Source of the DNA: Pseudomonas sp. ACM7
GTDB lineage: Bacteria; Pseudomonadota; Gammaproteobacteria; Pseudomonadales; Pseudomonadaceae
Length of the DNA stretch: 64,000 nucleotides
NCBI RefSeq assembly: GCF_004136015.1
Contig: NZ_CP024866.1
Span: 114,479 to 178,478, forward strand
Direction: 5' to 3'
The position numbers were made by a program, and so were the translations under genes. This document shows positions 11,564-28,204 of this stretch, piece after piece; position 1 is the stretch's first letter, and each line of letters opens with the position of its first letter. A model generated the notes under the pieces. The model had not been told where the DNA came from and searched no databases. It saw only the letters and a list, made by a program, of their open reading frames with translations.

Positions 11564-12781
11564 ATGCATCCGCAAAGACAAACCCTGCACAACGAACTGC
11601 ACGCGCGCCCGTCACTGTATTTCGACGAACCGGCCCATGTGTTTCATCTGGCCTTTCTTGGCGGGGAACCGGAGTGCAATGCGCTGCTGGAGCGCTGCTG
11701 CCCTGCTCCGATCGATCCTCATGCCGCCCAAGGCATCACCCAACTCGATGGCCACGCCCTGAAATGGGAACGCCACGCCGAGTTCTTCACCCTGACCCTG
11801 GTGGTCACTTCATCCTGCGATGACCTGTCCTGGACATCGCTGCCCGAGGTGCTGGCGCAAAAAGTCGAAGCGCATTTGCCGCAGCTGATCAACTCGGTGC
11901 AGATCGTAGTGCGTGGCGAAGCCGGCCTGGACCTCGCCGGCTACGGCTTCAAGGACCCGTGCGGTTCCTGCGTGGGCGGTGGCGATGCGGTGGTCTGGAG
12001 CGATTTTCGTCTCAGCGAGGACGGCAACAACCACATCCTGTTCGTCAACCGGCGCCTTAACGCTTACCGCCAAGGGCGGATGATCCGCCGTCTGCTGGAA
12101 ATCGAGACCTACCGCATGATGGCCTCGCTGTCGTTGACCACGGCCAAGACCCTCAGCGCGCAACTTGATGTCTTTGACAAGACCTTGGTCACCCTCTCCG
12201 AGCGTAACGCCGACGCCGACAGCGGCAACGCGAAAACCCTGCTGGCGGACATCTCCAACCTGTCAGCCCAAGTGGTCAGCAGTACCGCGAAAACCCGCCA
12301 CCGCTTCAGTGCCACCCAGGCCTATGCCCAACTCGTGTACGAACGCCTGGGCGAATTGCGGGAAAGTCACGTAGGCGATTGCCAACGCCTCGGGGTGTTC
12401 ATCGAGCGCCGTTTCAAACCCACCGTCAGGTACTGCACCGCCACCGAACAACGCCTGGAGCACCTGGCGAAAAGCGTGGCCAACCTGGGCGACCTGTTGC
12501 AAGCCCGGGTTCAGGTGGAAATGGAAGAACAGAACTCGGAAATCCTCAAAAGCCTGAACGCCCGCGCCGACGCCCAGATCAAAATCCAGCGCGCCGTCGA
12601 AGGTCTGTCGATTATTGCCATTACTTACTACCTGCTGAACCTGCTCAAGCTTGGCTACTCAGGGTTGCACCTGCTCGGCGCCGAGGTGGCCCCTCGAGAG
12701 GCGATGCTGGCGATGACGCCCCTCGCGATCGCCATCCTTGCGCTGATTATTTTCCGCATAAAGAAAGTCAAAGAGCACTGA
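11564..12781 (+). CDS. DUF3422 family membrane-anchored protein
   Basis: About 405 residues beginning MHPQRQTLHNELHARP, the conserved start of DUF3422 proteins (RQTLHNELHARPSLYF). A long soluble, largely helical N-terminal region has HAEFFTLTLV and a coiled-coil-prone stretch (about 210-330). Two C-terminal membrane helices follow (GLSIIAITYYLLNLLKLGY and AMTPLAIAILALIIF) with a basic tail, KKVKEH. The function of the family is unknown; the fold suggests an inner-membrane protein with a cytoplasmic coiled-coil domain. A longer frame starts at 11429, but the family start and length favour 11564. Confidence 0.85.
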   Translation: MHPQRQTLHNELHARPSLYFDEPAHVFHLAFLGGEPECNALLERCCPAPIDPHAAQGITQLDGHALKWERHAEFFTLTLVVTSSCDDLSWTSLPEVLAQKVEAHLPQLINSVQIVVRGEAGLDLAGYGFKDPCGSCVGGGDAVVWSDFRLSEDGNNHILFVNRRLNAYRQGRMIRRLLEIETYRMMASLSLTTAKTLSAQLDVFDKTLVTLSERNADADSGNAKTLLADISNLSAQVVSSTAKTRHRFSATQAYAQLVYERLGELRESHVGDCQRLGVFIERRFKPTVRYCTATEQRLEHLAKSVANLGDLLQARVQVEMEEQNSEILKSLNARADAQIKIQRAVEGLSIIAITYYLLNLLKLGYSGLHLLGAEVAPREAMLAMTPLAIAILALIIFRIKKVKEH

Positions 12782-12823
12782 AACGGCGAATCGCAGGGAT
12801 GCTGAATACCGCACACAAGGGCT

Positions 12824-13060
12824 CTAGCAAGCGTCAGCGCCTGAAGCATTTAACGGAGTGACTGAGTCAGTGCCTGAAGCAGAGACATTAAGAAAGGAAT
12901 TCCACATCTCATAAGCATCGTGATGCCGTTTGGTTGCCTCTTCCCATTCCGGCCCTGAAACACATCTGGAAGAGACCAGCGTCATCATTCCCATCGTTGC
13001 GGCATCCAGCTCGATCAGGAAAGCGTGAGAGTGGATCCTGAAGTCTTCGACCGATGGCAT
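12824..13060 (-). CDS. Small hypothetical protein
   Basis: 78 residues, MPSVEDFRIHSHAFLIELDA..., with GGGGGA about nine bases before the ATG. No signal peptide or membrane helix. The central EWEEATKRHHDAYEMWNSFL looks like an amphipathic helix. I do not recognise the family. The good ribosome binding site and natural composition support a real gene. Confidence 0.55.
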   Translation of the reverse strand: MPSVEDFRIHSHAFLIELDAATMGMMTLVSSRCVSGPEWEEATKRHHDAYEMWNSFLNVSASGTDSVTPLNASGADAC

Positions 13061-13255
13061 TACGTGTTCCCCCGGCGGATTCCACCGCTATCAAGGAGCG
13101 ACTGCTCCTCGGACGGTGGAGTATTGCCACCCGGTAGAATTCAGGCCGTCTGACCGCCGGTACGTTTCGTCAGGTAATCGAGGAACGCCGACAAAAAATC
13201 TCGAACTCAAGCCATAGCGTTGAATCCAATGTTCAGGTCAATGGAGGTCAGCGAT

Positions 13256-13456
13256 ATGAACAGCGATGACAGTGTTAATGACGTCAAATCAAATGCAACG
13301 TCAAACGCCGAAAGAGAGCTTGAGGACAGGGACACGGACGCCAAAGGTGTGGATGAAACCGTTACGCCCTCTTCAACTCGAACCAAAGAGCAGGAAGCTG
13401 AGGAACTCAGTCGGAAAATAGCTGGGATAGAACGGAAGGTGGCGGACGGTAACTAG
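13256..13456 (+). CDS. Small acidic hypothetical protein
   Basis: 66 residues, very hydrophilic and rich in Asp, Glu, Ser and Thr (MNSDDSVNDVKSNATSNAE...), ending in an amphipathic helix EEAEELSRKIAGIERKV-like segment. GGAGG lies ten bases before the ATG at 13256, which decides the start over upstream in-frame ATGs. The composition suggests a disordered or stress-related protein. No family recognised. Confidence 0.6.
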   Translation: MNSDDSVNDVKSNATSNAERELEDRDTDAKGVDETVTPSSTRTKEQEAEELSRKIAGIERKVADGN

Positions 13457-13639
13457 TAAGGCTCCAAGGGACGTGAGGTTGTAATCTTGAAGACACGCCG
13501 CTCCTCTCCTTCACCAATGTATTTGCATTGACGTTGGACGGGGCTAGGCCGGTTCCGGTGCTACGCTTTCATTTCCTCGAATAGAGAACGAAGCGATGTC
13601 CACCGAACTCTCGATCCCCACACGTTCACGACTGTAGCC

Positions 13640-14080
13640 ATGAAACGGTTCCTGATCGGTGGTATCGCCGTAGCGATTATCGGCACGATGACGTATGGAT
13701 TTTTCCAATGGAAAGTCGTCGAAAGCCACAAGCACGACATGCTGTGTGGAGAGGCCAAGCAGACGCTGAAAGGCGTGGAAATGCGAGCGAGGGCGTTGGC
13801 TGCCGGATTGTCTGTAGACGCCTATGCCAAGGCTGAAGAAGACGAAGTGGCGACACTCATTGTTGCGCTCGATGCCGCCAAGAGCGACGCTGAGGTCGAC
13901 TCGGTCATAGAGGCTCACGCTGCCGCCCTGGAAGCGGAGGATGCGGCTATTGACGCTCAGGTTGATACCCGAGGCGATCAGACATTCCTCGAGCAGCGAC
14001 TCGTGAAACAGCGGATACCTGTCGACGTTAAACAAGAACTGCAACGCGCCGCGAAGGCCGTTAGCGTCAAGTGTAGTTAG
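13640..14080 (+). CDS. Hypothetical protein with N-terminal membrane anchor or signal
   Basis: 146 residues. MKRFLIGGIAVAIIGTMTYG is a membrane anchor or uncleaved signal. The rest is an Ala- and Glu-rich helical domain (about 40-130). Two Cys (MLCGEAK near 36 and the penultimate VKCS) could form a disulfide in the periplasm. No family recognised. The upstream small proteins are on the same strand but separated by about 180 bp. Confidence 0.65.
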   Translation: MKRFLIGGIAVAIIGTMTYGFFQWKVVESHKHDMLCGEAKQTLKGVEMRARALAAGLSVDAYAKAEEDEVATLIVALDAAKSDAEVDSVIEAHAAALEAEDAAIDAQVDTRGDQTFLEQRLVKQRIPVDVKQELQRAAKAVSVKCS

Positions 14081-14094
14081 TGTTCAACTGTGCC

Positions 14095-14315
14095 CTACCC
14101 CACCGCCCCCAAAAGCAGCCCAAAGGCATTGATCAGGAAATGCTCGTCGGGCCCCGGCACTCGCGCCGAAAAATGCGTGTAGATGTGATCAGTCCATTTG
14201 AACAGGGCCGCCAGCCGATAGGCCGCGGCCAGTTTCACCCGCACATCCCATTCTTCGGGCTGACGCGCTGGCGAACATTTTTAGAGACGCTGGATAACGG
14301 GCTGACGCTGCTCAT
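14095..14315 (-). pseudogene. Class II aldolase/adducin family remnant
   Basis: Read on the minus strand, 14095-14265 encodes EEWDVRVKLAAAYRLAAL, KWTDHIYTHFSARVPGP and DEHFLINAFGLLLG, then a stop. This is the N-terminal part of a class II aldolase/adducin protein (normally about 250 residues), cut off just after the FLINxFG motif. The likely original ATG at 14315 is out of frame with this part, so there is also a frameshift. The metal-binding His cluster is lost; not functional. Confidence 0.7.
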
Positions 14316-14439
14316 GGCAAAACTTCCTGGAGGGCCTTAAGGATCTCCAGCAAGCCTATGGGAAGCCAAAAAATAATAAAAAGCACATGTTAATCCAAGC
14401 TAATTATCATTTTTTTTATTATATTTCAGCCACTCCATT

Positions 14440-14500
14440 CATGCCGCGCTCCGAAGGCAGGGGTCGTGGGTTCGATCCCAACGAAGCTCGCGTATCTTCC
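14440..14500 (+). other. tRNA 3'-half-like fragment (possible attachment-site scar)
   Basis: The stretch resembles the anticodon-to-T-arm part of a tRNA: CTCCGAAGGCAG (an anticodon loop reading CCG, Arg-like) followed by GGGTCGTGGGTTCGATCCC, where GTGGG-TTCGATC-CCAAC makes a T arm with one mismatch. No 5' half or acceptor stem is present. It adjoins an unusually AT-rich patch (14365-14430). tRNA 3' ends are common integration sites, so this may be a leftover of a lost element. Confidence 0.4.
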
Positions 14501-14538
14501 TCGTTCGATAAACAAGCCAACGCTTCTGGTAAATGGGC

Positions 14539-15960
14539 TCAACTCTTGACCTGTTGGCTCCTGCCGTAGACATCTTCCAGGCGCTCGATATCGTCCTCGC
14601 CCAGGTAACTGCCCGACTGCACCTCGATGATTTCCAGCGGGATCTTGCCGGGGTTGGACAGGCGGTGCACCGAAGCGATCGGGATGTAGGTTGACTGGTT
14701 TTCAGTGAGCAGGAAGACCTTTTCGTTGCACGTCACCTGGGCTGTACCGGAGACCACGATCCAGTGTTCGGCGCGGTGGTGATGCATCTGCAGGGAAAGC
14801 TGCGCGCCCGGTTTCACGGTGATGTGCTTGACTTGGTGGCGGGTGCCGCTGTCCACCGAATCGTAACTGCCCCAGGGGCGATACACCGCGCAGTGGCTCT
14901 GGGTTTCCGAGCGACCTTTGGCATCGAGCGCATTGACCAGTTTTTTCACGTCCTGCACGGCATCGCGGTGCGCGACCATCAACGCATCTTTGGTTTCTAT
15001 CACGACCAAATCGTTCAGCCCTAGCAGGGTCACCAGCTTGCTACTGCCATGCACGAAGCAATTGCGGCTGTTGTAGCTGACGACATCGCCCTTGAGCACA
15101 TTGCCGTCGACGTCTTTGTCGTGCACATCCCACAGCGAAGACCAGCAACCGACATCACTCCAGCCAGCGCTTAGCGGGACGACCCAGGCGCGGCTGGTGC
15201 GCTCCATCACCGCATAGTCGATGGAGTTGTCCGGGCAGCATTCAAAGGTGACCCGATCGATACTGGTCACGCCTTCGCTGCTGCGGCTGCGCTCCAGGGC
15301 CAGCACGCAGGTGTCGTACATGTCGGGTTCGTGAGTGCGCAACTCGTCGAGATAGCGGCTGGCACGGAACAGGAACATCCCGCTGTTCCAGAAGTACTCG
15401 CCGGATCGGACAAATTCGCTGGCGGTTTGCTGGTCGGGTTTCTCGATAAACTTCTCGACCTTGAAGGCGCCGGCGCCAGCATCGCTGCCGGCGGCCTTGA
15501 TATACCCAAAACCGGTTTCCGGACGCATCGCCGGAATGCCGAACAACACCATATTGCCTTTGAGCGCCTCTTCCTGCGCGTGTGACAGCGTGGCGCGCAA
15601 GGCGGGCACGTCACTAATCACGTGGTCGGCCGGAAGCACCAGCAGCAGCTCATCGCGGCCCTCGGCGATCAGCTTGAGGGCCACCAGCGCCACCGCCGGC
15701 GCGGTATTGCGGCCGAAGGGTTCGAGCAGTATCGCCTGCGGCGTACAGCCGATGGCGGCGAGTTGTTCATTGACGATAAAGCGATGTTCCTGATTACAGA
15801 CCACGATCGGCTTGCCGATACCCTCGAACGCCAGGCGCTGCAGGGTCTGCTGAAACAGCGATCCCTCGCCTGCCAGACTCAGGAATTGCTTGGGATACAA
15901 CTTGCGCGACAACGGCCACAACCGCGAACCACTGCCGCCGGACAGAATGACTGGAATCAT
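14539..15960 (-). CDS. algA: Mannose-6-phosphate isomerase / mannose-1-phosphate guanylyltransferase
   Basis: A 473-residue bifunctional enzyme for GDP-mannose, the precursor of alginate. The N-terminal nucleotidyltransferase domain has GGSGSRLWPLSRKLYPKQ (residues about 7-24) and FIEKPD. The C-terminal cupin isomerase domain has QMHHHRAEHW. The start at MIPVILSGG is supported by GGAGGAAAG upstream. It is the last gene of the alginate operon. It follows algL after only 133 bp, whereas in other pseudomonads algI, algJ and algF stand between them. Having algA intact at the end of the transcript indicates that the operon still supplies GDP-mannose. Confidence 0.95.
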   Translation of the reverse strand: MIPVILSGGSGSRLWPLSRKLYPKQFLSLAGEGSLFQQTLQRLAFEGIGKPIVVCNQEHRFIVNEQLAAIGCTPQAILLEPFGRNTAPAVALVALKLIAEGRDELLLVLPADHVISDVPALRATLSHAQEEALKGNMVLFGIPAMRPETGFGYIKAAGSDAGAGAFKVEKFIEKPDQQTASEFVRSGEYFWNSGMFLFRASRYLDELRTHEPDMYDTCVLALERSRSSEGVTSIDRVTFECCPDNSIDYAVMERTSRAWVVPLSAGWSDVGCWSSLWDVHDKDVDGNVLKGDVVSYNSRNCFVHGSSKLVTLLGLNDLVVIETKDALMVAHRDAVQDVKKLVNALDAKGRSETQSHCAVYRPWGSYDSVDSGTRHQVKHITVKPGAQLSLQMHHHRAEHWIVVSGTAQVTCNEKVFLLTENQSTYIPIASVHRLSNPGKIPLEIIEVQSGSYLGEDDIERLEDVYGRSQQVKS

Positions 15961-16093
15961 TGCACTTTCCTCCTGCACCTTCATCACTCGACATGAAGGC
16001 GCTTCGAACAGCGAAGGACTGCCTTCTCTTTTACAACACAAGCCCAATTACGAATGGCCCCACCGGGTATCCAGAGCGTGTTGGTTGTTACAT
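15961..16093. other. algL-algA junction, position of the missing algI-algJ-algF
   Basis: 133 bp without any recognisable remnant of algI, algJ or algF in six frames. The algA ribosome binding site is at its left end. Sequence next to the algL stop is slightly AT-rich (AACAACCAACAC read leftward). Confidence 0.8.
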
Positions 16094-17185
16094 TTATTCT
16101 TTCTGGTCAGCAAATAGCTGGGTGATGTCGCCGCCCAGGCGGTAGGTTTTCATCGGTTCGAACGATTGGCGCCAGCGGTTGGTTTGCAACGAGCAGTCGT
16201 ACAGCGCGCAGTAAGGTTCCAGCCAGGCAAACTTGCCATCCTCGTCGAGGTCCTCGAGTTCCTGCTTGTAGCCGGTCTTGCGTTCAAACGTGCGTGGGTC
16301 CTTGATCCCCTCCTCCACCCGCGCTGCCAGACGCCGCATGGCACCGTGGTTTTCTTCGCGCAGGTCGATGTCATTGGCTCGGGCAAAGGCAGCGATCATC
16401 ATCAGCGGCCCCATCGCATAGTTGTGGTAAGCCAGCGCACGGGTTTCGCGGTTCAGTTCGTTGGGCAGGTATCCGTCTGCATCGACCTGGGAAGCGCCGA
16501 TGCGAAACTGCGCTACCGACCAGTCGAACAGGTCGCGTCGGTCGACCACCACCGAGGCCGCCATGACGGCCCAGGCCGCCCAATACTGGTGATTGTTCAG
16601 TCGGTCCAGTGGCTGGTCGCGCCAGTCCCGCACCACCTGATCGGCGAGCTGGCCGATCCAGACCTCGATCGGTCGGGTCTGCGCCTCGCGGCCCCTCAAA
16701 GGCTGCGAGCGCGAATACTTGAGCCGCAGATAGGCCGAAGAAATACTGCCCAGCGCCCATTTGCGCATCGACTTGCCGGTATGGGTGTAGGTGGTACTCA
16801 GCAGCGCCTGCGCCTTGGCCCAATCGCCCAGCCAACTCAGGGTGCAGTCCACATGGCCGGCGCGGCCGAGCCGTAAATAGGCGGCGACTTGTTTGTTGAC
16901 GCCCTTCTCCAGTTCGTTGATATCGGCTGACATTTGCTTGTAGCGTTGGTTGGATTCCACGTTGAGCTGATCACGTGCCTTGCCCGAGCCCTCGTACTTA
17001 CTGGGGATCAACAGGTCACCGGTATAGGGTTTGGGCGCCGCCGGACAGCTCGGCACGTCGCCATTCTTCTCCACGGCCGACGCGTAATAGCCCTGCGGCG
17101 GGCGCAGTTGAGCGGCCACCGCCTGCACGGTCGGCCCCATCAGAATGAAGGCCACGCCAATGGCGGCCCAGTGCGCCTGACGCAT
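16094..17185 (-). CDS. algL: Periplasmic poly(beta-D-mannuronate) lyase
   Basis: A 363-residue PL5 alginate lyase with a signal peptide (MRQAHWAAIGVAF to VQAVAAQ). It cleaves mannuronate links and clears polymer trapped in the periplasm. Catalytic elements are present: LNNHQYWAAW (Asn-His pair) and RALAYHNYAM (Tyr), and the block AWLEPYCALYDC near the C-terminus. The ATG overlaps the algX stop (TGATG at 17183-17187), so it is translationally coupled. The sequence looks fully functional. Confidence 0.95.
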   Translation of the reverse strand: MRQAHWAAIGVAFILMGPTVQAVAAQLRPPQGYYASAVEKNGDVPSCPAAPKPYTGDLLIPSKYEGSGKARDQLNVESNQRYKQMSADINELEKGVNKQVAAYLRLGRAGHVDCTLSWLGDWAKAQALLSTTYTHTGKSMRKWALGSISSAYLRLKYSRSQPLRGREAQTRPIEVWIGQLADQVVRDWRDQPLDRLNNHQYWAAWAVMAASVVVDRRDLFDWSVAQFRIGASQVDADGYLPNELNRETRALAYHNYAMGPLMMIAAFARANDIDLREENHGAMRRLAARVEEGIKDPRTFERKTGYKQELEDLDEDGKFAWLEPYCALYDCSLQTNRWRQSFEPMKTYRLGGDITQLFADQKE

Positions 17186-18582
17186 CAGTGCCCCTCCGTC
17201 TGCGCGGTGCGCAGGGAAGGTGTCGCAGAGATGACGGGCTTGGCACACAAGCGGGCCGAGAGCTCCATGGAGGTCGGTCCAGGCGGTGGCTGCACGTCCA
17301 TGGAAAGAAAAGTCAGTTCGTCCCAGTCCGCATCGGCGCGCAGCTCGAAGGCGAAGCGGCCCTGGGTATTGACCGTCGGCGAACGGCTCAAGCTGATGTT
17401 TTCCTGGCGACCGTTCATGTAGGTCAGGGTCGCGCTCATCAGATGCACGGCGGGATCGGCGAACTTTAGGTCGACCTGATAACGATTGCCCTTGATCGGA
17501 TACACATTGCCGCCACCGCCGTTGAACAACACCTGATTGCGCCCGCTGTGCAGGGTCGAAAGGCTTTTGAGCAGCGGCGCCTGGTTGTCGCAGCCATCGC
17601 TCAGCGCTGCCATCGCCTGCCGGTAGAAACTGGATTTGCCCAGGTTGTCGAGATTATCGGTTTCCCACACCAGCACCGTCGGCGGGCGCTTCTGGAAGTC
17701 GTCGCCGAGCAGGTAGGCGATCAACGAATCATCATAGCCACCGCCCGGCACACTGAAGTTGCTGACCGGCGTCTGCAGATACTGTTCGAGGAAGCCGGCA
17801 AAGTTGAACGCCTCGCCGCTGGCGCTGGTACCGATCAATACGACCTTGGCGGGGACCTTGGCATCGCCTTGGGCCCGGGTTTGATAACGGGTGACAAACT
17901 GCGCCGCATAACCGTTGCCGCAGATCTGCGCGGCGGCTTTTTGCAACGTGCCAGAGCGTCCCAACAAGCCGACCGGCTGGCTGGCGAAGACCTGATGCGG
18001 CAACGCCTTGAGCACGTCGTTACCGCTGAGCGTCTGGGCCACCAGCTGGGCGCTGCGTTCGGCGCCATAGGGCGTCCAGTTGTGGTCGCCCTTGAAGTAG
18101 AAAGGCTGCCCGGTTGGCTGCGGCGCACCCAGCAGGCTGGTGAAGTCGGGGACCAGAATACGTAAGTCGCGCACCCGGTCCAGCGTTTGCAAGTAGTTCT
18201 GCCGGGCCTTGGCCTGATCGAAGTTGGCCAGTTCCAGCGGCGTCAGGCGGTCGGCATGCAGCAAGCCGCGGCTGGGTGGCAACACCAACACCAGCTCGAC
18301 CCCGCGTTGGGCCAGCCCGTCGCGCAGACGCTTGAGGGCTTTGTAACCGCTCTCATCGAGGCCGAAGTCAGTGCGAAAATCGCTTTGGGTGCGAAAGAGC
18401 CACTGGTCTTGGGCCTCCACCAGGGTCGCGTAGTTTTTCAGCTCCGGCTGCTCGTAAAGTGTCGCCTGCGCCGCTTGTGGGCACAGCTGACAGCAGGCCT
18501 CGGCCGTGTACTCCGGCTGCGCCTGTCCCCACGTCGGCACAGACAGCAGGCACAGCGCGGCAAATCCATGGAGGGTGTTCAT
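17185..18582 (-). CDS. algX: Alginate O-acetyltransferase-like/scaffold protein AlgX with an altered catalytic motif
   Basis: A 465-residue periplasmic SGNH-hydrolase-like protein with a signal peptide (MNTLHGFAALCLLSVPTWGQA) and a C-terminal carbohydrate-binding module. AlgX carries out the last step of alginate O-acetylation and is also a structural part of the export complex. The serine block LIGTSASGEAFNF is intact. The DxHW motif reads G-D166-H-N168-W, so the third position, His in P. aeruginosa AlgX (H176) and in AlgJ, is Asn here (codon 18079-18081). That should abolish acetyl transfer. The ATG at 18582 has GAGG-rich sequence within algG's end; an in-frame GTG at 18597 is less likely. 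Confidence 0.93.
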   Translation of the reverse strand: MNTLHGFAALCLLSVPTWGQAQPEYTAEACCQLCPQAAQATLYEQPELKNYATLVEAQDQWLFRTQSDFRTDFGLDESGYKALKRLRDGLAQRGVELVLVLPPSRGLLHADRLTPLELANFDQAKARQNYLQTLDRVRDLRILVPDFTSLLGAPQPTGQPFYFKGDHNWTPYGAERSAQLVAQTLSGNDVLKALPHQVFASQPVGLLGRSGTLQKAAAQICGNGYAAQFVTRYQTRAQGDAKVPAKVVLIGTSASGEAFNFAGFLEQYLQTPVSNFSVPGGGYDDSLIAYLLGDDFQKRPPTVLVWETDNLDNLGKSSFYRQAMAALSDGCDNQAPLLKSLSTLHSGRNQVLFNGGGGNVYPIKGNRYQVDLKFADPAVHLMSATLTYMNGRQENISLSRSPTVNTQGRFAFELRADADWDELTFLSMDVQPPPGPTSMELSARLCAKPVISATPSLRTAQTEGH

Positions 18583-18593
18583 CGGCAGGCTCC

Positions 18594-20111
18594 TCACAGT
18601 GTCTCGGGCAGAATCAACGCGGCTGCATGGCGGCGCAGGAGAATGTCCATCAAGTCGCCTTGCACCTCCCCCAGCAAACCGGTGAAGGCAAGGCCGTCCT
18701 GTTTCTGCGGCGCCAGAAAGGTCAAGTCATAGAGTTCCAGACGCGAGGGTGAAAACACGGTGATGGGGCTGGAACCGTTGCCGATCAGCTTGCCGCCGAC
18801 CACGGTGAGCGACAACCTGGCTTCGTAGGGGTCTTCCTTGAGGTCGCGGTCGCTGCCGCGCAAATCCTTGATGTGACCGTAGATACCGGTCAGGGCATTG
18901 GCCATCAGCTCGTTTTCATACAGCCGCACACCGGTGCTGTTACGCACCCGGATCCCGTGCCGGTCATTGTCGATCGCGCGGTTGCGCCAGATCAGGTTAT
19001 TGCCGCTCTCATACAGGGTCATGCCGTCGGAGCGGTTTTTGTAGGTCTCGTTGTAGGCCACCAGGTTATTGACGCTGGAACGGTCCAGAACGATGCCCGA
19101 CAGGTGGTTGTTGTAGGCGCGGTTGTAGATGATCCAGCTGTCGTTGACCTCGCGTGAGAGGATAATGCCGTGCTTCTTGCGGGTACCAAAGGCGTCGTTG
19201 TGGGCAATGATCAGCCGGCGTGAACGGTCGTGCGGGTCGATGCCATAGACGATGTTGTCGCGGTAGGAATTGCCGAGAATCACCACGTCGTCGGCCTCAT
19301 AGCAATAGAAGCCGTACCAGTTGTCAACGAACTGCGAATTGAGCAACCAGCCGGTCGGCCGCTTGCGCTTCATCTTCGGCGCCATGCTCGGGCTGTACTG
19401 GGAAATACTCACCCCATAACTCTTGCTCGCGGTGTAGCCGAAGCTGGTGATGGTGCTGTTGACGATGTAGGTCTCGGTGCCGCCCCAGGACACCAGGAAG
19501 GGCCGAAACTCCCCCTCTTTCTTGTACCAGGCCGGGCTGTCGTCCTTCTCGCTCCAGGCGCTGACCTTGGTGTCGGTGATAAACAGCTTGCCGTCATTGA
19601 CCAGGAAGGAACCGCCCTCCTGGGACAATCGCAACTCCTTGACCGACTTGTCGATATGCAGGGTCCCGCCCGGACGTATGACGATTGGCAAGCGTGCCAG
19701 AAACACTCCCGGCGCAGTTTCGCGCAAGGCCGTCGGTGGCAGGCTGCGCGCCAGTTGCGTCAAGTTCATGTAGCCCCGATCGATGAAGATCGCCACCGGC
19801 ATTCGCTGCTGGCGCACCACCCATTCCTTGAGACGCTCCTTGCCGCCGATGAACTCGTCGAGCGAGTTTTCCTTGAGCATCGGCTGGATCAAGGCACTGC
19901 CGGCGGGCTTGTAGGAAATCTTCGCCATGGCTGCCTCGGCCGTATAGCCGGACAGGTCGGGGATCTTTGGCTCGCTGATCAGCAAGGGCTTTCCCGGAGC
20001 CTCGCTAATGGTATAGCGCGGCGCGAATACGAGACCCGCCGCGCTGACACCCGCGGTCTGCACCAACAGCAGTCCGGCGAGCAACAGCCCTATCTTGACG
20101 ACACTGTCCAT
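18594..20111 (-). CDS. algG: Periplasmic mannuronan C5-epimerase
   Basis: About 505 residues: a signal peptide (MDSVVKIGLLLAGLLL...SAAG) and a right-handed beta-helix built from CASH-type repeats. It converts mannuronate to guluronate in the polymer and protects it from AlgL as part of the periplasmic complex. The catalytic DPHD motif is present in YGIDPHDRSRRL, followed by repeats NNLVAYNETY, NNLIWRNRAID and GVRLYENELM. Start: ATG at 20111 with a close GAGG, or GTG at 20120; uncertain by three codons. The stop overlaps the algX ribosome binding site. Confidence 0.94.
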   Translation of the reverse strand: MDSVVKIGLLLAGLLLVQTAGVSAAGLVFAPRYTISEAPGKPLLISEPKIPDLSGYTAEAAMAKISYKPAGSALIQPMLKENSLDEFIGGKERLKEWVVRQQRMPVAIFIDRGYMNLTQLARSLPPTALRETAPGVFLARLPIVIRPGGTLHIDKSVKELRLSQEGGSFLVNDGKLFITDTKVSAWSEKDDSPAWYKKEGEFRPFLVSWGGTETYIVNSTITSFGYTASKSYGVSISQYSPSMAPKMKRKRPTGWLLNSQFVDNWYGFYCYEADDVVILGNSYRDNIVYGIDPHDRSRRLIIAHNDAFGTRKKHGIILSREVNDSWIIYNRAYNNHLSGIVLDRSSVNNLVAYNETYKNRSDGMTLYESGNNLIWRNRAIDNDRHGIRVRNSTGVRLYENELMANALTGIYGHIKDLRGSDRDLKEDPYEARLSLTVVGGKLIGNGSSPITVFSPSRLELYDLTFLAPQKQDGLAFTGLLGEVQGDLMDILLRRHAAALILPETL

Positions 20112-20197
20112 AAGCCTCACTCATCAAAATAAATGCAACCTGGTGTGATCAAGGCGCTGTTGCCCACGATGGCATCACTGCGGGCAACAACCTGGGC

Positions 20198-21631
20198 CTA
20201 GATTTTCCAGACGAAATCAATGAACGCCCGGTGCATGCTCGAGTCGGTGTCGCTGGCGTACGCGTCACCCGGGAAGAACACGCCGAGGCGCAAGCGGATC
20301 AGCGCCGAGGGTTCGTCGACCCAATCCACCATGCTCGCGGGCAACAGGCCTTGTTTGAAGTACTTGGTCATGACCAGATCGACTTCCTGGCCCAGGTCCT
20401 TCTCACCGTCCACCAGTGCCGCATTGATGATCCCGCCGTCGCCGGTGTCCTGCTGGTCGTCGACCCGCCAGAAGCGGTGGTAGACGAGGCTGGCGTCGTA
20501 GTCCTCGCGCAACTGCCAGGAGCCGAACAGGGTAGCCACCTGGAGGTTGCTCAGTTCACCGCGAAAGGCTTCGCCGAAACGGTGAACGCGCGAACGCGTG
20601 CCGGTGTAGTTCGAGCGATTGCTCTGCAGGCCGGTTTGCTGGAACTGATTCTCCTGGTCGTTACCGCCGCCGTCGCCGCGGGCTGCGGCAGCGCCGAGGC
20701 GCCAGCTTTCATCGATGTTCCAGCGCAAGCCCAGGTCCGCGCCCCAGGCGTTGACGTCGCCACTGGTGTGGCCCGTCGCAACTCGATCGCCGTTAGCATC
20801 GATCACGCTGGTAAGGTTGTCGCGACTGCCGGTCAGCCAGGTCGCGTTGAGCCAGTAATTGACCGGCATCGTCGAGCGATAGTTGTAGCCGTCACCGTTC
20901 GCTTCGAGACCGACCCAGGTCAGGCTGCCGGTGTTGGTCTTGTCGAGCGCATCGAGCTGCTCGCCCGTATTGGGCAGACTGCCGCTGTCCTCGGAGTGAT
21001 GCACGCGCAGGCCCAACCAGTGATTGGGCGCCCATTGCGTAGAGATGTCGGCGAAGGCATGGGAGCGGTCTTTGTCTTGGGGCGCCAGGTCGCTCAAGTC
21101 AGTGCGGTAGTCGGAAAAGCGTTCAGCGGCGCCGAGGTGGGCGCGCAACAGCGTGGTCTCGAAGGTCCAGTTGAGCGCTTCGATGTTGGTGTCCATCCAC
21201 TCGCCGCTGTCCTCGCGCAAACGCTGGCGCCCCAAGCGCAAATGCTCGCCCGGATAGGCGGTGATGCCCGAATAGTCGACCCAGAACTCGCGCATCGCCA
21301 GGTAGCTGTCATCGGTCCCGCGGGCGTTACTTTCGTCGACGCCGTTGTTCACCGTATCGGTGTCGATGGTATCGGTCGCTGCCACCGCCTGCCCCATCAA
21401 ATAGGCACTCCAGTCACCCCATTGGCCAAAGGCCCAGGGGCGCAAGTCGATGCCAATACCGTTGAGGGTGCCACCGGGTGCGGTGCCCAGGTCACGGTCG
21501 TCCTGCGACTCACCGGTAATCTTCACATCCAGGCCGAAATTCTTCGGAGCCACCTCCGCCGCCAGCACCAGACCGGCACTGCACATCAGCGAAACACCCA
21601 GACCACAACCTGCCAATAATGCTTGCTTCAT
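20198..21631 (-). CDS. algE: Outer-membrane alginate export porin
   Basis: A 477-residue protein with a signal peptide ([15 protein letters not shown]...LVLAAE) and a beta-barrel pattern of alternating aromatic strands ending FIDFVWKI. AlgE is the 18-stranded channel through which alginate leaves the cell. Conserved blocks include [39 protein letters not shown] and [12 protein letters not shown]. It begins inside the algK stop (ATGA overlap at 21628-21631). A 77 bp gap separates it from algG. Confidence 0.94.
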
Positions 21632-23028
21632 AGTAAGTCCTGTCCATTTTCCGGAGTTTGCAGTCTGGCTAGCGCCGCGCCCGTCAGACGGGCCTGGGCT
21701 TCCCCTTCAAGCAAAGGCTGCGCGATTTTCCTTTCTGCCGGGGTCAGCCCCGACTGCAGGGCCGACAGCACTGGCTCTGCATTTACCACGCCCTGACGCT
21801 GCGCGAGTTGCGCAAAGACATAGGCATTGATCCGATTGACCTTGACCCCGCGGGAGTCGGAAAACATGTGCGCCAGGGCCAGGTCGGCATTGGGCGAACC
21901 GTTGCGGGCCGCCAGCAACAAATGTTGCAGCGCCTTCTGCGGTTCGACCTGGCCCAGATAACCGCGCCGGTACAACTGGCCCAGGTAGTAATGCGCCCCG
22001 ACTTCACCGGCCGCGGCCGCCTTGAGCAAATGCTCTTCAGCCAGACGCGGGTTCTGCGGCAACCATTTGCCGAGGTAATACAGCCGCCCGGTCAGCAGTT
22101 CCGCCCGTGGGTCGCCCGCCTCGCGCCCGCGCTGCAAGGCCGAGAGCAATTGCGGCGCATCGCCTTGCACGGGGTAGTCGTTGATCAACCGTGCCAGGCT
22201 GGTCCAGGCCGGCGCATAGACCGGCGCCAATTCCTCGAGCAGGCGCTGGGCGCTTTGTGCATCGGCCGGGCCTTCGAGGGCTGGCGACGATAGAACGCGC
22301 GCCACCGACTCGACCCGCAAGGGCGCGACTCGTCCCTCGCGCCAACCCTGGCGCAACTCCACCAGCAAGGCCGCTTGCGCATTGGGCTGGGCGCGCATTC
22401 GGTTGATGGTGGCCAGCTCCACATAACAGGCATCGAGTACCGCAAGCCGAGCCCGGCACATCTGCTCGATCTGCGGCAGGTGAGCCTTATAGGTGCCCTG
22501 ATTGCGGTAAATCAGAATCTGCGCCAGATCCGCCTCGACAATGCCCTGGGCGCGCCAGCCATCGACCTTCTGCTGCGGATCCACCCCAGGCACCAGTTGC
22601 GGGTAGCCCAGGTACAACAACGTCAGCGGCACCACCGCACTGAACTCGCCTTTATCCAGCGCGCCTTCCAATAATTGCTGGGCCTCGCGCACTTGCTTGG
22701 GATCACTCGGTCCCTGACGCAACAACAAGCGGCCCAGACGTGACTGCGCCTTGACCGACTCCGGCGCGGCCTGCCGGTACAAGGCTTCAGCCTCTTTCAG
22801 GCTCGCCGGGTCGCCCGCCGACGCCGTCAGGTCGCCCATCCCGGCCTGGGCATCGGCATAGCCGTCCTGGGCCAGCGCCGCATAGTGCTTGCGTGCCGTT
22901 TCATAATCGCCGCGCAACATGGCCTCGCGCGCCAACCCCTGATCCGGCAGGGTGCCGCAACCATGAATCATCATCAGAGCTGCGGCCAGCGCAGAAAACC
23001 GCAGCCCCGATCGCCATGCGCCGTTCAT
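21628..23028 (-). CDS. algK: Alginate outer-membrane lipoprotein with TPR/Sel1-like repeats
   Basis: A 466-residue lipoprotein. A signal peptide ends at the lipobox MIHGC (Cys24), followed by an array of helical repeats such as [46 protein letters not shown] and [23 protein letters not shown]. AlgK anchors to the inner leaflet of the outer membrane, places AlgE and binds AlgX. Both ends are coupled to neighbours by 4-bp overlaps (alg44 upstream, algE downstream). Confidence 0.94.
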
Positions 23029-24239
23029 TTTCCGGCCGCCATGGCTTTATTCTCCCAGGCATTCTTCACCCAGGTATTGGCCGCCCAGGCATTCTTCACC
23101 CAGGCATTGCTTTGCAGGTTTTCGATACTGACTTCCACCGGACGCCCGGCGAGATCGGTCTGCAACGCGCTGTCAGGCTCAATGGTGACCCGCAGGTCGG
23201 AGGCCAGGCCGCCGTTGTCCAGCACCACCGTGGCGATTTTGCCCGTGCGTGGCTGTTCTTCACCCACCAGTTGGAAGCTCACTGCCTTGCCAGGCTGGAT
23301 CTTGGCAAAGTTCTTATAGGGGAAGCGCGCCTCGATGGTCGCCACACCATCGATCGGCATCAACTCGTATACCGTGGTGCCCTTGCCGACGACCTGGCCG
23401 TCCGGCACCAGCTGCGCCACCACCCGGCAATCGCAAGGGCTGGTCAGCGAACCTTGCAGGGTCCGGCTGAACAGGCGCTCGAGGTTTTCCGGGGTCGCCT
23501 GCCCGGGTGGCAGGTTGCCTTTCATCACATCCAGCAGCGACGCGGAAAAGGTCGCCAGCGGCGCCCCCTTGGACACCACCGCCCCCACCTTGACCAACGA
23601 CTTGACGCTGCCGTCGCGCGGCAGGCCGATCAACTGGCCGGGCACGTTGACCCGCGCCGATTCGGCATGAGTGACGAAATAAATGCCATACAACTGGTTC
23701 AGCACATAACCAAAGGCACCCAGTCCCACCAGGAACATCAGCAGGCTCACCGTGGTCGCCCGCAAGCGTGCGAAAAAGCCCAGGCCGTTGCCGCTATCGT
23801 GCTTTCGCGGCTTGGTGAAGTTGTCGCGCTGCTGGGTCGCGAGCATGTCACCCAGGCTGATCACCCCACCCGAGAGGTAGGAGGTGATCAGATAACGCAA
23901 TGCGGAGATCGCACGTGGAGGCAGGTTGTGGAACTCGCAACCCACCCGCAGCCCCTCGCTGCCTACCGAGCGCACGACAAACTCCACGTCGATGGCAAAC
24001 CCAAGCGCATCGACCTGAAACACCAGTTTGCCTTTGTGCTGTCGGCCCACGATCAGCGGTGGGTTCAGCTGACTCAGGCTGAAGCCACCGGCCGACAAGT
24101 CGATCAGTTCGCAATCGAACATCTCCCGGTTCGGCACGTGTAACTTGAGCCTCGCCGGTAGATTCAGCCGCGCATGCTGACGCTGCACCTCCGACTCATG
24201 CACAACATTGTCATCAACAGCAATACAAGCTGTGTTCAT
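23025..24239 (-). CDS. alg44: Alginate polymerase co-factor Alg44 (PilZ domain, membrane fusion-like)
   Basis: A 404-residue c-di-GMP receptor for alginate polymerisation. The N-terminal PilZ domain has the binding motif RQHAR (20-24) and DLSAGGFSL. A single membrane helix (about 165-190, VSLLMFLVGLGAFGYVLNQLYG) is followed by a periplasmic HlyD-like part. The start at MNTACIAV matches family members and has GGGA upstream. The C-terminus is unusual: short tandem repeats of the type N-A/T-W-V-K-N-A-W. The residues that bind c-di-GMP are intact, so polymerisation should depend on this second messenger. Confidence 0.93.
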   Translation of the reverse strand: MNTACIAVDDNVVHESEVQRQHARLNLPARLKLHVPNREMFDCELIDLSAGGFSLSQLNPPLIVGRQHKGKLVFQVDALGFAIDVEFVVRSVGSEGLRVGCEFHNLPPRAISALRYLITSYLSGGVISLGDMLATQQRDNFTKPRKHDSGNGLGFFARLRATTVSLLMFLVGLGAFGYVLNQLYGIYFVTHAESARVNVPGQLIGLPRDGSVKSLVKVGAVVSKGAPLATFSASLLDVMKGNLPPGQATPENLERLFSRTLQGSLTSPCDCRVVAQLVPDGQVVGKGTTVYELMPIDGVATIEARFPYKNFAKIQPGKAVSFQLVGEEQPRTGKIATVVLDNGGLASDLRVTIEPDSALQTDLAGRPVEVSIENLQSNAWVKNAWAANTWVKNAWENKAMAAGK

Positions 24240-24356
24240 AACGCGTCCCTTCCCTTCCACGATTGAGAACGATCCGGCAGGTCAGAGCCGGTATGCACCT
24301 TTATCCTTTACCGCTGTGCAGACCGGCACGGCATGCCGACTGCCCTGACACCTGCG

Positions 24357-25838
24357 CTACACCATCCACATCAGCAGCGCGCAAAACACACTGCCGGCCG
24401 AAAAGGTCATGGCCCGCGACGACCAGGTATTGAACCAGCGCTGATAGCTGGCCAGCCCGCGGTCGAGTCTGGTTTTCTGGCGCGTCCACGATTGCCGGTC
24501 GAGACGGAAGAACACATAGATCTTCACCACGGCGCCGACCAACTGGTTGTAATAGAGAATCAGTGGATAGGCCGGCCCGACCGGGTGCCCCGAAGCCAGC
24601 AACAGCAGACTCAGGAACAAGCGAGTCAGGCCGATCCAGAGCACATAGATCAGCAGGTAGGCCATGCTGTATTTGAGGCTGGCAATGATCGCCACTGACG
24701 GCCCGAGCAGGCTGGCCCACATCGATACGCGTTGATCGAACAGCACCAGCGAGGTGAACCAGCCCAACCGCTGCACGCCCAAGTGCAGCGCCCGCGAGTT
24801 CTGCCGCAGGTTATTGCCATACCAACGGAACATCAGCTGGCGGCTGGCCTTGAAGAAGCTCTTTTCCGGGGGGTGCTCGACCGTGTTGATCGCCGCATCG
24901 GGCACATAAAAGGTGTCGTAGCCCAGCCGCATCAGGCTGTACCAACTGGACTTGTCATCACCGGTCAGGAAGCGGAAACGCCCCAGGCGCCAGTGCTGCA
25001 GATAATCGCTCTCTACGTCTTGAATAAAGCCGGGGTCGGTCACCACTTGGGCGCGAAACACCGACATCCGCCCGGTCATTGTCAGCACTCGCTTGCCCAG
25101 TGCCATCGAACACATATTGATGTGCCGCTGGGCGAACCGCAGCTTATGCCATTGGCTCATCAGGTAGCTTCCGCGCACCTCGCAGAACTCATTGGTGGTC
25201 AGCCCGCCGACGTTCGGGAACAGCTTGAACCAGGGCACGGTCTGACGCACCAGCCCGGGCGAGAGCACGGTGTCGCCATCGACCACCGCCACCACCGCAT
25301 CGGCATCCGGCAAATACCGGGAGATCGCCCGAAAACCATGGGCCAGGCCATCGCGCTTACCGGTGCCGGGAATCCGCACGAAGCTCAGCTTGACCTGCTC
25401 CGGCGGGGTATAGCTGTCCCACAGCGCTTTGATCAGCAGTTCATCGGCCAGCTCGACGATGGAACAGACCACCGTGGTCGGGTAACCACAACCGATGGCC
25501 TCTTCGATCACCGAGCGGTAGACCTGCGCCGTGGTCAACGCATCGATACGAAAACTGGTGACCAGCAAAAACACCTGCGACGGATCGGCAGTGCTGCCCA
25601 GCCTGGTGACTCTGCGTCTGTAATAAGGGAATACCAGATAAAGGAACAGCATCCCCCGCAGGTAATGGATCGCGCCCATCGAATAACGCCAGATACCGAC
25701 CGCCCCCAGCAACAGGAGAAAGTCCCTGGATTGGGGATCGAACACGGTGCGCGGCAGCAACAGTGCAAGCCCCATCAGCGCGGTGACGTAGAACAACCAG
25801 CCCGCAGCTTCGCGCAAGTAAACCCTGGAATCAGCCAT
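24357..25838 (-). CDS. alg8: Mannuronan synthase catalytic subunit Alg8
   Basis: A 493-residue GT2-family membrane glycosyltransferase that polymerises GDP-mannuronate. N-terminal membrane helices (about 10-65) precede the cytoplasmic GT-A domain with [11 protein letters not shown] (DxD), [10 protein letters not shown] (acceptor-site Asp pair) and SRQLMFRW (a QxxRW-like product-binding motif); C-terminal helices follow. The ATG at 25838 (MADSRVYL) gives the family length; the frame is open further upstream to 26015, overlapping algD, but that part has no homology I recognise. Confidence 0.94.
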
Positions 25839-25899
25839 ACCTATGACCCCCCGTTCGATAAACCCATGTTGTTTGGGGCGCATCAGCTCCGCGCCTCGC

Positions 25900-27210
25900 T
25901 TACCAGCAGATACCCTCGAGCCGATCGTCACTGGCGTGTGGCAGGAAGCCCACCAGGTCAACCACCTGCTTGCCCTCGGGCACCTGAAGCGCAATGGCTT
26001 TGAAGGACTCGTCACTGTTACCCAGCACGATCACCTCCGCCTGCTCGATCACTTTCGCAAGGTCAGGGCACAACAGCGAAGCCAGGTGCGGAATCTTCGA
26101 CTCGATGTACTCTTTGTTGGCCCCGTAGATACGCGCGTATTCAACGTTGCGGTCGAAGATATGCAGGTCGTAGCCCTTGCCTATCAGCATCTCGGCCAAC
26201 TCCACCAGCGGGCTTTCGCGCAGGTCATCGGTGCCCGCCTTGAAGCTCAGGCCGAGTAGCGCGACACGCCGCTTGCCGTAACTGCTGATAATGTCGAAGG
26301 CTCTCTGTACCTGCACCGCATTGCTGCGCATGATCGAGGCCAGTAGCGGGTGCTCGACGTCCATTTGCCCGGCGCGATAGTTCAGCGCACGCACATCCTT
26401 GGGCAGGCAGGAACCGCCGAACGCAAAGCCGGGGCGCATGTAATAACGCGACAGGTTGAGTTTGGTGTCCTGGCAGATCACGTCCATCACATCGCGACCG
26501 TCCACGCCGGCGGCCTTCGCGATATTGCCGATCTCATTGGCGAAGGTCACTTTGGTCGCGTGCCAGACATTGCAGGTGTACTTGATCATCTCCGCCACTT
26601 CGATGCTCCTGCGCAGGAGCGGCGCGTCCAGCTCTTGATAAAGCGTGGCGAGCATGTCACCGCTGCGCTGGTCGAGTTCACCGATCACCGTCATGGGCGG
26701 ACAGTTGTAATCCTTGATCGCGGTACTTTCGCGCAGGAACTCCGGGTTGATCGCCACGCCGAAGTCGACCCCGGCCTTCTTGCCGGAATAGTCTTCAAGT
26801 ATCGGGATCACCACGTTCTTCACCGTGCCCGGCAGCACCGTGCTACGCACCACTACTGTGTGCCAACTGTGCTTGTCGTGCAGGGCTTCTCCGATCTCGC
26901 GGCAGACCGACTCGATGTAGACCAAGTCCAGATCGCCATTCTTCTTGCTGGGCGTACCGACGCAGAGGAACGACATGTCCGTGCCCATCACTGCCGCCTT
27001 CACATCACGGTCACCACGCAGCCGCCCAAAACTCACACCCAGCTCGAGCAGCGGCTCCAGGTCGGGTTCAACGATGGGCGACTTACCCTGGTTGATCAGG
27101 TCAACCTTGACTTGCGAGACATCCACCCCGATTACGTCATGACCGCGAGCACAGAGACAGCCCGCACATACAGCGCCCACGTACCCCAAACCAAATATGC
27201 TGATCCGCAT
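25900..27210 (-). CDS. algD: GDP-mannose 6-dehydrogenase, first gene of the alginate operon
   Basis: A 436-residue enzyme that oxidises GDP-mannose to GDP-mannuronate, the committed step of alginate synthesis, with two NAD+ per turn. The N-terminal Rossmann fold has FGLGYVG, the active-site Cys268 stands in FGGSCLPKD, and [14 protein letters not shown] lies in the C-terminal UDP/GDP-binding domain. GGGGGA is eight bases before the ATG. It heads the operon downstream of a long AT-rich leader; a 61 bp gap leads to alg8. Confidence 0.97.
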
Positions 27211-27828
27211 GGGTGAATCCCCCGTATACCTTGATTCAAGAATGCCATCGGCATGCCGCGCAGGCCGACAGTCGCTCTACCGCACCAACTAATAACCGAT
27301 CGTTAGGCACAACTTGACTCTCGACCCACACCGTAAAATTGGAGTGTAGACAAACATCAAGCACGTTCTGTTTTTTTTAAAATAAATTTCGAACACTTCG
27401 CGCCGACAACATGAGTAGTTAGATCAGCAAAGTGAGTACCCACATCGTAAACACGTTAACCATTGATAAAATTACTATTAAAATCAGTGGCATATAAAAA
27501 TTATCGTGACTGACACCTCAAACAAAAACATATACCCGCGCACCAAAAACAAGCAGATACTTACGATACTTACCGGACAGACACGCCTAAAGCCCTGACA
27601 CAGTGCAATGCCAACGTTGCAACATTGTAAGCGTATCTAATAAATTCCTCGTACTGTGTAAAGCTACTGAAACACGTCAATTTTTTTAATAACTATTTAT
27701 TGGCGCTCGCCCTACACGCAATAGTTAATACCTTTTAAAGAACAAACTCTTTAGGGACTCTCCGAATAAGTCCTCGAATGTGCTGATATATGTCCTGACT
27801 ACCTGAGCGAGCCGCCCATGAACCCGAT
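27211..27828 (-). promoter_or_regulatory. algD upstream regulatory region
   Basis: About 600 bp of AT-rich sequence (for example 27365-27395 and 27470-27500) without a gene, in strong contrast to the GC-rich coding DNA around it. In Pseudomonas the algD promoter is controlled over several hundred base pairs by AlgU, AlgR, AmrZ and AlgB, and this region has the expected position and character. A small hairpin, TAAAGA-acaaac-TCTTTA, lies near 27736-27753. I could not find a convincing AlgR consensus box. Confidence 0.6.
27339..27370 (-). promoter_or_regulatory. Weak AlgU-like promoter candidate for algD
   Basis: Read on the minus strand, AGAACGT (5 of 6 to the GAACTT -35 of AlgU/RpoE-type promoters) is followed after 19 bp by TCCAA. 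The spacing is two to three bases longer than usual, so this is only a candidate. It would give an untranslated leader of about 120 bases. Confidence 0.25.
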
Positions 27829-28195: not shown

Positions 28196-28204
28196 CCAAA
28201 ACGC

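What the first reader, a model, noticed from the sequence alone, without database searches (positions are those of the whole stretch)
14539..20111. Alginate operon without algI-algJ-algF and with AlgX lacking its catalytic His
algL is followed after 133 bp by algA; the three acetylation genes found between them in other pseudomonads are absent without trace. In addition, AlgX, the terminal acetyltransferase, reads D166-H-N168-W where the family has DxHW; the His that completes the Ser-His-Asp triad (H176 in P. aeruginosa) is Asn. All other alginate genes look intact. The two changes agree with each other: acetylation was lost and AlgX was released from catalytic constraint but kept for its structural role. 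This predicts non-acetylated alginate with different lyase sensitivity, gelling and surface attachment.
Basis: partly seen in the sequence, partly recalled or inferred. Interest (0 to 1): 0.85.

Follow-up and report, generated by a model that had tools for sequence, protein, structure and literature searches.

The report
Second alginate operon with dead AlgX
This bacterium carries two sets of alginate-making genes, and the one found here has lost its acetylation genes and keeps an acetyl-transferring protein whose active site is broken, so it probably makes a second, unacetylated kind of alginate beside the normal one.

Summary
In detail: algL and algA are 133 bp apart, algI-algJ-algF are absent, and the AlgX catalytic His (H176 in P. 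aeruginosa) is Asn. The organism-level reading fails: this is a second alginate operon, and the same chromosome holds a complete canonical one with algIJF. Thirteen examined genomes in two genera carry such a second operon; 13 of 13 lack algIJF in it and hold canonical algF elsewhere. They form one clade. In this AlgX lineage the oxyanion Tyr (Y328) and pinch-point Trp (W400) are lost in 30 of 30 sequences, His in 21, Ser in 11; the AlgK-docking end, predicted fold and purifying selection remain. Best reading: AlgX became a pseudo-acetyltransferase kept for export, and the operon makes non-acetylated alginate. The product is untested. Loss of acetylation genes in one such operon is already in print (P. 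resinovorans, PMC7112194); nine searches of open-licence papers showed nothing on the dead AlgX.

The parts
25900..27210 (-). algD copy 2, GDP-mannose 6-dehydrogenase
   Evidence: 74% aa identity to the canonical AlgD of the same genome; nucleotide sugar dehydrogenase TIGR03026 over cut-off
24357..26015 (-). alg8 copy 2, mannuronan synthase; likely true start near 25838 (MADSRVYL), the ORF given is longer
   Evidence: 77% to canonical Alg8; VDGD and LMFRW stretches kept
23025..24260 (-). alg44 copy 2, c-di-GMP-binding co-polymerase
   Evidence: 48% to canonical; RxxxR and DxSxxG PilZ motifs kept (motif meaning recalled)
21628..23028 (-). algK copy 2, TPR lipoprotein, partner of AlgX
   Evidence: 48% to canonical; matches 7ULA chain B at 1.7e-125; NCBIfam AlgK model 545 bits, below its cut-off of 700
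20198..21631 (-). algE copy 2, outer-membrane porin
   Evidence: 55% to canonical
18594..20120 (-). algG copy 2, mannuronan C5-epimerase
   Evidence: 59% to canonical; NCBIfam NF038177 over cut-off; DPHD motif kept (catalytic role recalled)
17185..18597 (-). algX copy 2, AlgX without a working acetyltransferase site; likely start Met6 at 18582
   Evidence: 39% to canonical AlgX; matches 4KNC and 7ULA; model mean pLDDT 85.7, TM-score 0.94 to 4KNC normalised by the target
18079..18081 (-). Asn173 codon AAC at the place of catalytic H176
   Evidence: Asn in 15 of 15 window-type AlgX
17824..17826 (-). Ser258, place of catalytic S269, kept here; replaced in 11 of 15 V-type AlgX
17806..17808 (-). 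Phe264 at the place of active-site Tyr Y275
   Evidence: Tyr in 27 of 28 AlgX outside the lineage, in 1 of 30 inside it
17647..17649 (-). Asp317 at the place of oxyanion-hole Tyr Y328
   Evidence: Tyr in 26 of 28 AlgX outside the lineage, in 0 of 30 inside it
17422..17424 (-). Thr392 at the place of pinch-point Trp W400 of the carbohydrate-binding module
   Evidence: Trp in 28 of 28 outside the lineage, Thr in 30 of 30 inside it; role of W400 from PMC9487903 passages
18478..18516 (-). AlgK-docking N-terminus of mature AlgX (PEYTAEACCQLCP), kept
   Evidence: docking segment from PMC9734138 section 6
16094..17248 (-). algL copy 2, periplasmic alginate lyase; likely start Met at 17185
   Evidence: 55% to canonical; NF001467 over cut-off; NNHxYW and R...Y stretches kept
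15961..16093 (.). 133-bp gap where canonical operons have algI-algJ-algF; no trace of them
14539..16047 (-). algA copy 2, PMI/GMP; likely start at 15960
   Evidence: 71% to canonical; TIGR01479 over cut-off
27211..27400 (-). upstream leader of algD, similar among window-type operons although the flanks beyond it differ

Best explanation
The region is a second, acetylation-free alginate operon. In an ancestor of this operon lineage algI, algJ and algF were lost and AlgX lost its oxyanion Tyr and pinch-point Trp, so AlgX stopped being an acetyltransferase. After that the catalytic His and Ser eroded separately in different branches (His to Asn here). AlgX was kept because it docks on AlgK and guides polymer to the AlgK-AlgE export pore. 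Alg8/Alg44 make polymannuronate, AlgG can epimerise it without acetyl groups in its way, AlgL clears periplasmic polymer, and AlgE exports non-acetylated alginate. The cell thus keeps two alginate pathways, a canonical acetylating one and this one. Shown: gene content, the second operon, residue losses, clade, selection, predicted fold. Inferred: no activity in AlgX, the export role of this AlgX, the order of events, a non-acetylated and possibly more epimerised product, separate deployment of the two operons.
For: Canonical operon with algIJF elsewhere on the chromosome. 13 of 13 examined operons of this lineage lack algIJF and 13 of 13 host genomes hold a canonical algF. One clade, SH-aLRT 100. 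AlgX inside the lineage against outside: Y328 lost 30 of 30 against 2 of 28, W400 30 of 30 against 0, Y275 29 of 30 against 1, H176 21 of 30 against 1, S269 11 of 30 against 0. Median dN/dS of window-type AlgX 0.24, other eight genes 0.11-0.19, over the 10 pairs of five of the seven window-type genomes. Fold kept, AlgK-docking end kept, AlgK contacts partly kept. Literature: D174, H176, S269 needed for acetylation (PMC4148444 passages); AlgX mutants without activity still make nonacetylated alginate (PMC10641220 passages); [quoted passage not shown]
Against: No chemistry or expression data. AlgX dN/dS relative to the canonical copy (1.9-fold) is no higher than for AlgL (2.6), AlgK (2.1) or AlgD (1.9), so relaxation is not specific to AlgX by this measure. 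Overall, AlgX keeps 63% (window-type) and 56% (V-type) of the sites fixed in canonical AlgX, but 67% in the three second operons that do have algIJF, so the total erosion is not special either; only which sites are lost is. In the window type Ser258 and Asn173 are both fixed in 15 of 15, more orderly than free drift. One AlgX outside the lineage (P0092) also lacks the His (D-Y-S), and two outside lack the Tyr, so single lesions are not diagnostic. The canonical AlgIJFX of the same cell could acetylate this polymer in the periplasm. Unordered parsimony allows as few as four intact/lost changes on the AlgX tree, with regains.
Confidence: 0.78

Rival explanations
1. Acetylation in trans: when both operons are on, the canonical AlgI/J/F and canonical AlgX acetylate polymer made by the second Alg8/Alg44, so the second operon raises alginate output rather than giving a different polymer.
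For: 13 of 13 host genomes keep canonical algF and the own genome the whole set. Synthase and precursor genes are the most alike between the two operons (Alg8 77%, AlgD 74%, AlgA 71%).
Against: The second operon has its own AlgK, AlgX and AlgE, at 39-55% identity to canonical, and AlgX with AlgK forms the route to the pore; lineage-wide loss of W400, Y275 and Y328 is not expected if the polymer were routinely handed to the same chemistry.
Confidence: 0.13
2. AlgX was re-purposed rather than silenced: Asn173 and Ser258 serve another activity or a tuned polymer-binding site.
For: D-N-S is fixed in 15 of 15 window-type AlgX; W400 is replaced by Thr in 30 of 30, the same residue each time; R406 by Gln in 30 of 30.
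Against: Sister V-type AlgX carry Tyr or Asn at the His and Gly, Arg or Asn at the Ser, with no shared new set.
Confidence: 0.06
3. The operon is a decaying duplicate without function.
For: The copy is rare (10 of 398 genomes of the genus, own one included); algK of one relative (G401) reads in two frames.
Against: All nine genes are open in the window and dN/dS is 0.11-0.24; the lineage is old, at 39-77% identity to canonical, and V-type operons share their flanks in two genera.
Confidence: 0.03

Closest known systems
Canonical algD operon of Pseudomonas (algD-8-44-K-E-G-X-L-I-J-F-A)
   Same: Nine of twelve genes in the same order and orientation; synthase, epimerase and lyase motifs kept
   Different: No algI, algJ, algF; AlgX active site broken; located elsewhere and present beside a canonical operon
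Partial alginate operon duplication in Pseudomonas resinovorans with loss of acetylation machinery (PMC7112194, passages incl. S5 Fig legend)
   Same: Second alginate operon without algIJF.
   Different: The passages I read name one genome and call it a partial duplication; here 13 genomes in two genera form a separate old clade, and the AlgX lesions are not mentioned in those passages
Second alginate operons with moved acetylation genes (X-I-J-F-L-A; G377, G214, G291 here; apparently clade ii in PMC7112194)
   Same: Nearest lineage to this one in the concatenated tree (midpoint root)
   Different: Keep algIJF, and AlgX keeps D-H-S, Y328 and W400
P. aeruginosa AlgX catalytic mutants (PMC10641220, PMC4148444 passages)
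   Same: AlgX without a working triad; alginate still made, not acetylated
   Different: Laboratory mutants; here a natural, long-lived state
Pap cluster of P. fluorescens F113 (PMC7716237 passages)
   Same: Second acidic polysaccharide locus in fluorescent pseudomonads
   Different: Wzy-type, different genes; not this operon

Membership tests
Alginate biosynthesis operon | algD, alg8, alg44, algK, algE, algG, algX, algL, algA together on one strand | tested here: met
Alginate biosynthesis operon | acetylation genes algI, algJ, algF in the operon | tested here: not met
   present elsewhere in the genome
Alginate biosynthesis operon | makes alginate | not testable with these tools
   no wet-lab data
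AlgX alginate O-acetyltransferase | AlgX fold, SGNH-like domain plus CBM | tested here: met
   PF16822, 4KNC/7ULA by sequence and by model
AlgX alginate O-acetyltransferase | Asp-His-Ser triad (D174, H176, S269) | tested here: not met
   D kept, His to Asn, Ser kept
AlgX alginate O-acetyltransferase | oxyanion-hole Tyr Y328 | tested here: not met
   Asp317; role from PMC4148444
AlgX alginate O-acetyltransferase | pinch-point W400 and active-site Y275 | tested here: not met
   Thr392 and Phe264; roles from PMC9487903
AlgX alginate O-acetyltransferase | docks on AlgK through its N-terminus | tested here: inconclusive
   docking sequence kept, 4 of 8 listed AlgK contact residues identical and one conservative; binding not tested
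AlgX alginate O-acetyltransferase | transfers acetyl to polymannuronate | not testable with these tools
   needs purified protein

The most novel reading that the evidence does not exclude
Some Pseudomonas and a sister genus keep two alginate pathways that make two chemically different alginates: an acetylated one from the canonical operon and a non-acetylated, probably more epimerised and calcium-gelling one from an old second operon in which AlgX is a natural pseudoenzyme devoted to export.
Probability: 0.5. Interest if true: 0.75.

Novelty: new variant of a known kind. Interest (0 to 1): 0.6.

Why it matters
AlgX has two jobs that are hard to separate in P. aeruginosa: acetylation and guiding polymer to export. 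This lineage is a natural separation of the two. It shows which parts of AlgX can go once acetylation is gone (Y328, W400, Y275, H176, S269) and which are kept (AlgK-docking end, fold). If the product is non-acetylated, these bacteria can choose between two alginates with different gelling and lyase sensitivity, and the name 'alginate O-acetyltransferase' is wrong for these proteins.

Tried and rejected
Organism-wide loss of acetylation: rejected, canonical operon present. Catalytic His shifted by one place (D-H-N-W): rejected, the middle residue is variable in the family. Sequencing error: rejected. Pap of F113 as the same thing: rejected. An AlgU-type promoter upstream of algD: the pattern found nothing in 12 of 13 second-operon upstream stretches, but also nothing upstream of the canonical algD, so the test says nothing. 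Integration at a tRNA: ARAGORN finds no tRNA in the window and Rfam no tRNA in 12700-14600; a tRNA-like T-arm at 14466-14479 was not resolved. AlgX-specific relaxation by dN/dS or by overall site retention: not shown. Independent His/Ser losses: unordered parsimony gives 4 intact/lost changes, 7 for His and 5 for Ser over 64 rows, the change in P0092 included; counting losses only I read 8 inside the lineage from the drawn tree (inference). NCBIfam has no match for the window AlgX.
Full report
What is in the window. On the minus strand, window 27210-14539 holds algD, alg8, alg44, algK, algE, algG, algX, algL and algA. The gap between algL and algA is 133 bp and holds no piece of algI, algJ or algF. 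In the alignment to PDB 4KNC and 7ULA the residue at catalytic H176 is Asn173; D174 and S269 are kept.

It is a second operon. The window lies in a 6.60-Mb single-contig genome. The same contig has algX (1548819-1550267), algI (1551601-1553190), algJ (1553202-1554377), algF and algA after algD-8-44-K-E-G, a complete canonical operon. Its algI is the one place found with PF03062, the MBOAT family (of the 14 control genomes PF03062 rang in 3, PF16822 and PF11182 in none). Identities between the two copies are AlgD 74, Alg8 77, Alg44 48, AlgK 48, AlgE 55, AlgG 59, AlgX 39, AlgL 55 and AlgA 71%. The canonical AlgX reads D-Q-H-W with Ser. So the organism has not lost the acetylation genes.

How common it is. 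A search with the window AlgG over 398 genomes of the genus found 10, the own one included, with a window-like second copy (67-100% identity; at most three candidates per genome were scored, so this is a lower bound); the window and the nine fetched stretches all lack algIJF in that operon. A search with a related AlgX (P0019) over 398 genomes of the family found 6 at E <= 1e-122, the own one included; three were new and in another genus (G517, G567, G570), also without algIJF. The draws overlap in part. A search of 143 relatives of G027 found 3, all known. Named records with a window-type AlgX (80-100%) are P. migulae NBRC 103157, P. fluorescens PS691 and PS858, Pseudomonas sp. AL03, UYIF39 and R5(2019), six of eight loci found; the other two are at 42 and 30%. 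All 13 examined genomes hold a canonical algF elsewhere. The canonical stretch was fetched for the 12 others; for G231 it is cut by the contig end and shows algI, algJ, algF and algA only.

Lineage. A tree of nine concatenated proteins from 31 operons puts the 13 operons without algIJF in one clade (SH-aLRT 100), apart from the 15 canonical operons; three second operons with the order X-I-J-F-L-A are the nearest relatives under a midpoint root (short search, LG+G4, no bootstrap). The six V-type operons (G027, G080, G401, G517, G567, G570) share flanks across two genera; in G517 these hold an aconitase and an MCP/PAS gene. The seven window-type operons sit in at least three different surroundings within the 2-5 kb looked at: G000 with G198; G078; and G231, G282, G321, G403. 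Except in G198, homology to the window ends within about 50 bp past algA and 190-530 bp before algD, which suggests transfer or relocation. A transposase-domain remnant lies upstream of algD in the window (27937-28338, just below the Pfam cut-off).

AlgX. The protein search gave 177 proteins at E <= 1e-20, of which the best 120 are listed and used. In an alignment of 138 rows (these 120, the window protein, 17 loci) 108 read D-H-S; of the 30 that do not, 29 belong to this lineage and one (P0092, D-Y-S) does not. After removal of six duplicate rows (P0012, P0018, P0019, P0020, P0009, W_G198), one search compares 15 window-type, 15 V-type and 28 other AlgX; the 28 are 15 canonical, 3 X-I-J-F-L-A and 10 database hits chosen for the tree. 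Only 12 of the 30 (13 with W_G198) and 18 of the 28 have their operon content checked; the rest are placed by sequence. Lost inside/outside: Y328 30/30 and 2/28; W400 30/30 and 0/28; Y275 29/30 and 1/28; H176 21/30 and 1/28; S269 11/30 and 0/28; D174 0/30 and 0/28. None of the exceptions outside is among the 18 with checked content. P. aeruginosa numbers were assigned by counting along the 4KNC chain (offset 26, consistent for D174, H176, S269, Y275, Y328 and W400). The AlgX tree (64 rows, triad columns left out) holds the lineage together at 100/100 and needs 7 changes at the His and 5 at the Ser column; binary intact/lost needs 4 if regain is allowed (it warns of long branches joining the X-I-J-F-L-A rows with P0029). 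Because the 13 operons are one clade, the link between algIJF loss and Y328/W400 loss counts as one event, not thirteen.

What is kept. Of 88 columns nearly invariant outside the lineage, 19 are kept in under half of the window-type or of the V-type AlgX, among them H173, the Ser block (T257, S258), F264 and T392 (16, 19 and 28 rows, with some duplicates). The AlgK-docking N-terminus (mostly AEACCQLCP) is kept. In AlgK, of eight contact residues listed for P. putida, G367, Q372, R383 and G402 are identical, R404 is Lys, and N368, H401 and A333 are Gln, Arg and Gln (contact list from PMC9734138 section 6; positions by my counting). The model of AlgX (48 sequences, mean pLDDT 85.7) matches 4KNC with TM-score 0.94 by target length. 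Median dN/dS over the ten pairs of G000, G078, G403, G282 and G321 is 0.24 for AlgX and 0.11-0.19 for the other eight genes, against 0.13 and 0.06-0.13 in their canonical operons; the increase is general, not special to AlgX. Of sites fixed in canonical AlgX, 63% are kept in window-type, 56% in V-type and 67% in X-I-J-F-L-A operons, so the amount of erosion is not special either; the choice of sites is. Motifs of AlgG, AlgL, Alg44 and Alg8 are kept. The window AlgK scores below NCBI's AlgK cut-off (545 of 700 bits) and AlgX matches no NCBIfam model.

Mechanism. Work in P. aeruginosa shows that AlgX D174, H176 and S269 are needed for acetylation (PMC4148444 passages), that AlgX mutants without activity still make nonacetylated alginate (PMC10641220 passages), and that loss of algI, algJ or algF leaves secretion intact while loss of algX does not (PMC9734138 passages). 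AlgG epimerises unacetylated residues (PMC9734138). From these the best reading is a second pathway that makes non-acetylated alginate with AlgX as export scaffold. That more epimerisation follows is inference.

What is known. PMC7112194 (passages, S5 Fig legend) reports a partial operon duplication with loss of acetylation machinery in Pseudomonas resinovorans, a clade with rearranged acetylation genes, and greater divergence of alg44 and algX among alginate operon clades. The loss of algIJF in one such operon is therefore in print. I found nothing on the AlgX lesions or on the width of the clade in search listings 19, 23, 26, 29, 61, 63, 64, 76 and 80, which cover open-licence PMC papers only; Riley 2013 on AlgX is not held, and supplementary files were not open to me.

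Verdict. Real, correctly seen in the sequence, wrongly scaled to the organism, and part of a wider pattern: an old, rare second alginate operon with a natural pseudo-acetyltransferase.

Noticed in passing
G000:C1:5786829-5797545 (L009 1830-12546): A synthase-type polysaccharide cluster with UDP-GlcNAc 2-epimerase, BcsB-like, GT2 with MshEN domain, NfrA-like, an AlgF-like and an AlgX/AlgJ-family protein but no MBOAT gene found by PF03062.
   Followed up: partly
L079, L080, L082 (G377, G214, G291): Alginate operons with order X-I-J-F-L-A; two AlgG matches in each of these genomes.
   Followed up: partly
G007:C4:101890-103269, G025:C22:49785-51191, G015:C1:2223558-2224904, G001:C1:753181-754542: Nearly full-length AlgX-like proteins at 30-33% identity; in G007, G015 and G025 another AlgX/AlgJ-family match lies about 0.75 kb away; the G025 one has a stop inside.
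   Followed up: no
window 14466-14479: T-arm-like piece (GTGGGTTCGATCCC) just downstream of algA, perhaps a tRNA remnant; no tRNA called by ARAGORN or Rfam.
   Followed up: partly
L077 12017-13347 (G401): algK of this relative gives two tblastn pieces in different frames, so it may be broken.
   Followed up: no
P0092: An AlgX outside the lineage that reads D-Y-S; gene context unknown.
   Followed up: no
window 27937-28338: Transposase-domain (DUF772) remnant upstream of algD, just under the Pfam cut-off.
   Followed up: no
window 27211-27740: A 530-bp stretch of 41.5% GC before algD, against 61.3% in the operon; the 190-530 bp next to algD are similar among window-type operons.
   Followed up: partly
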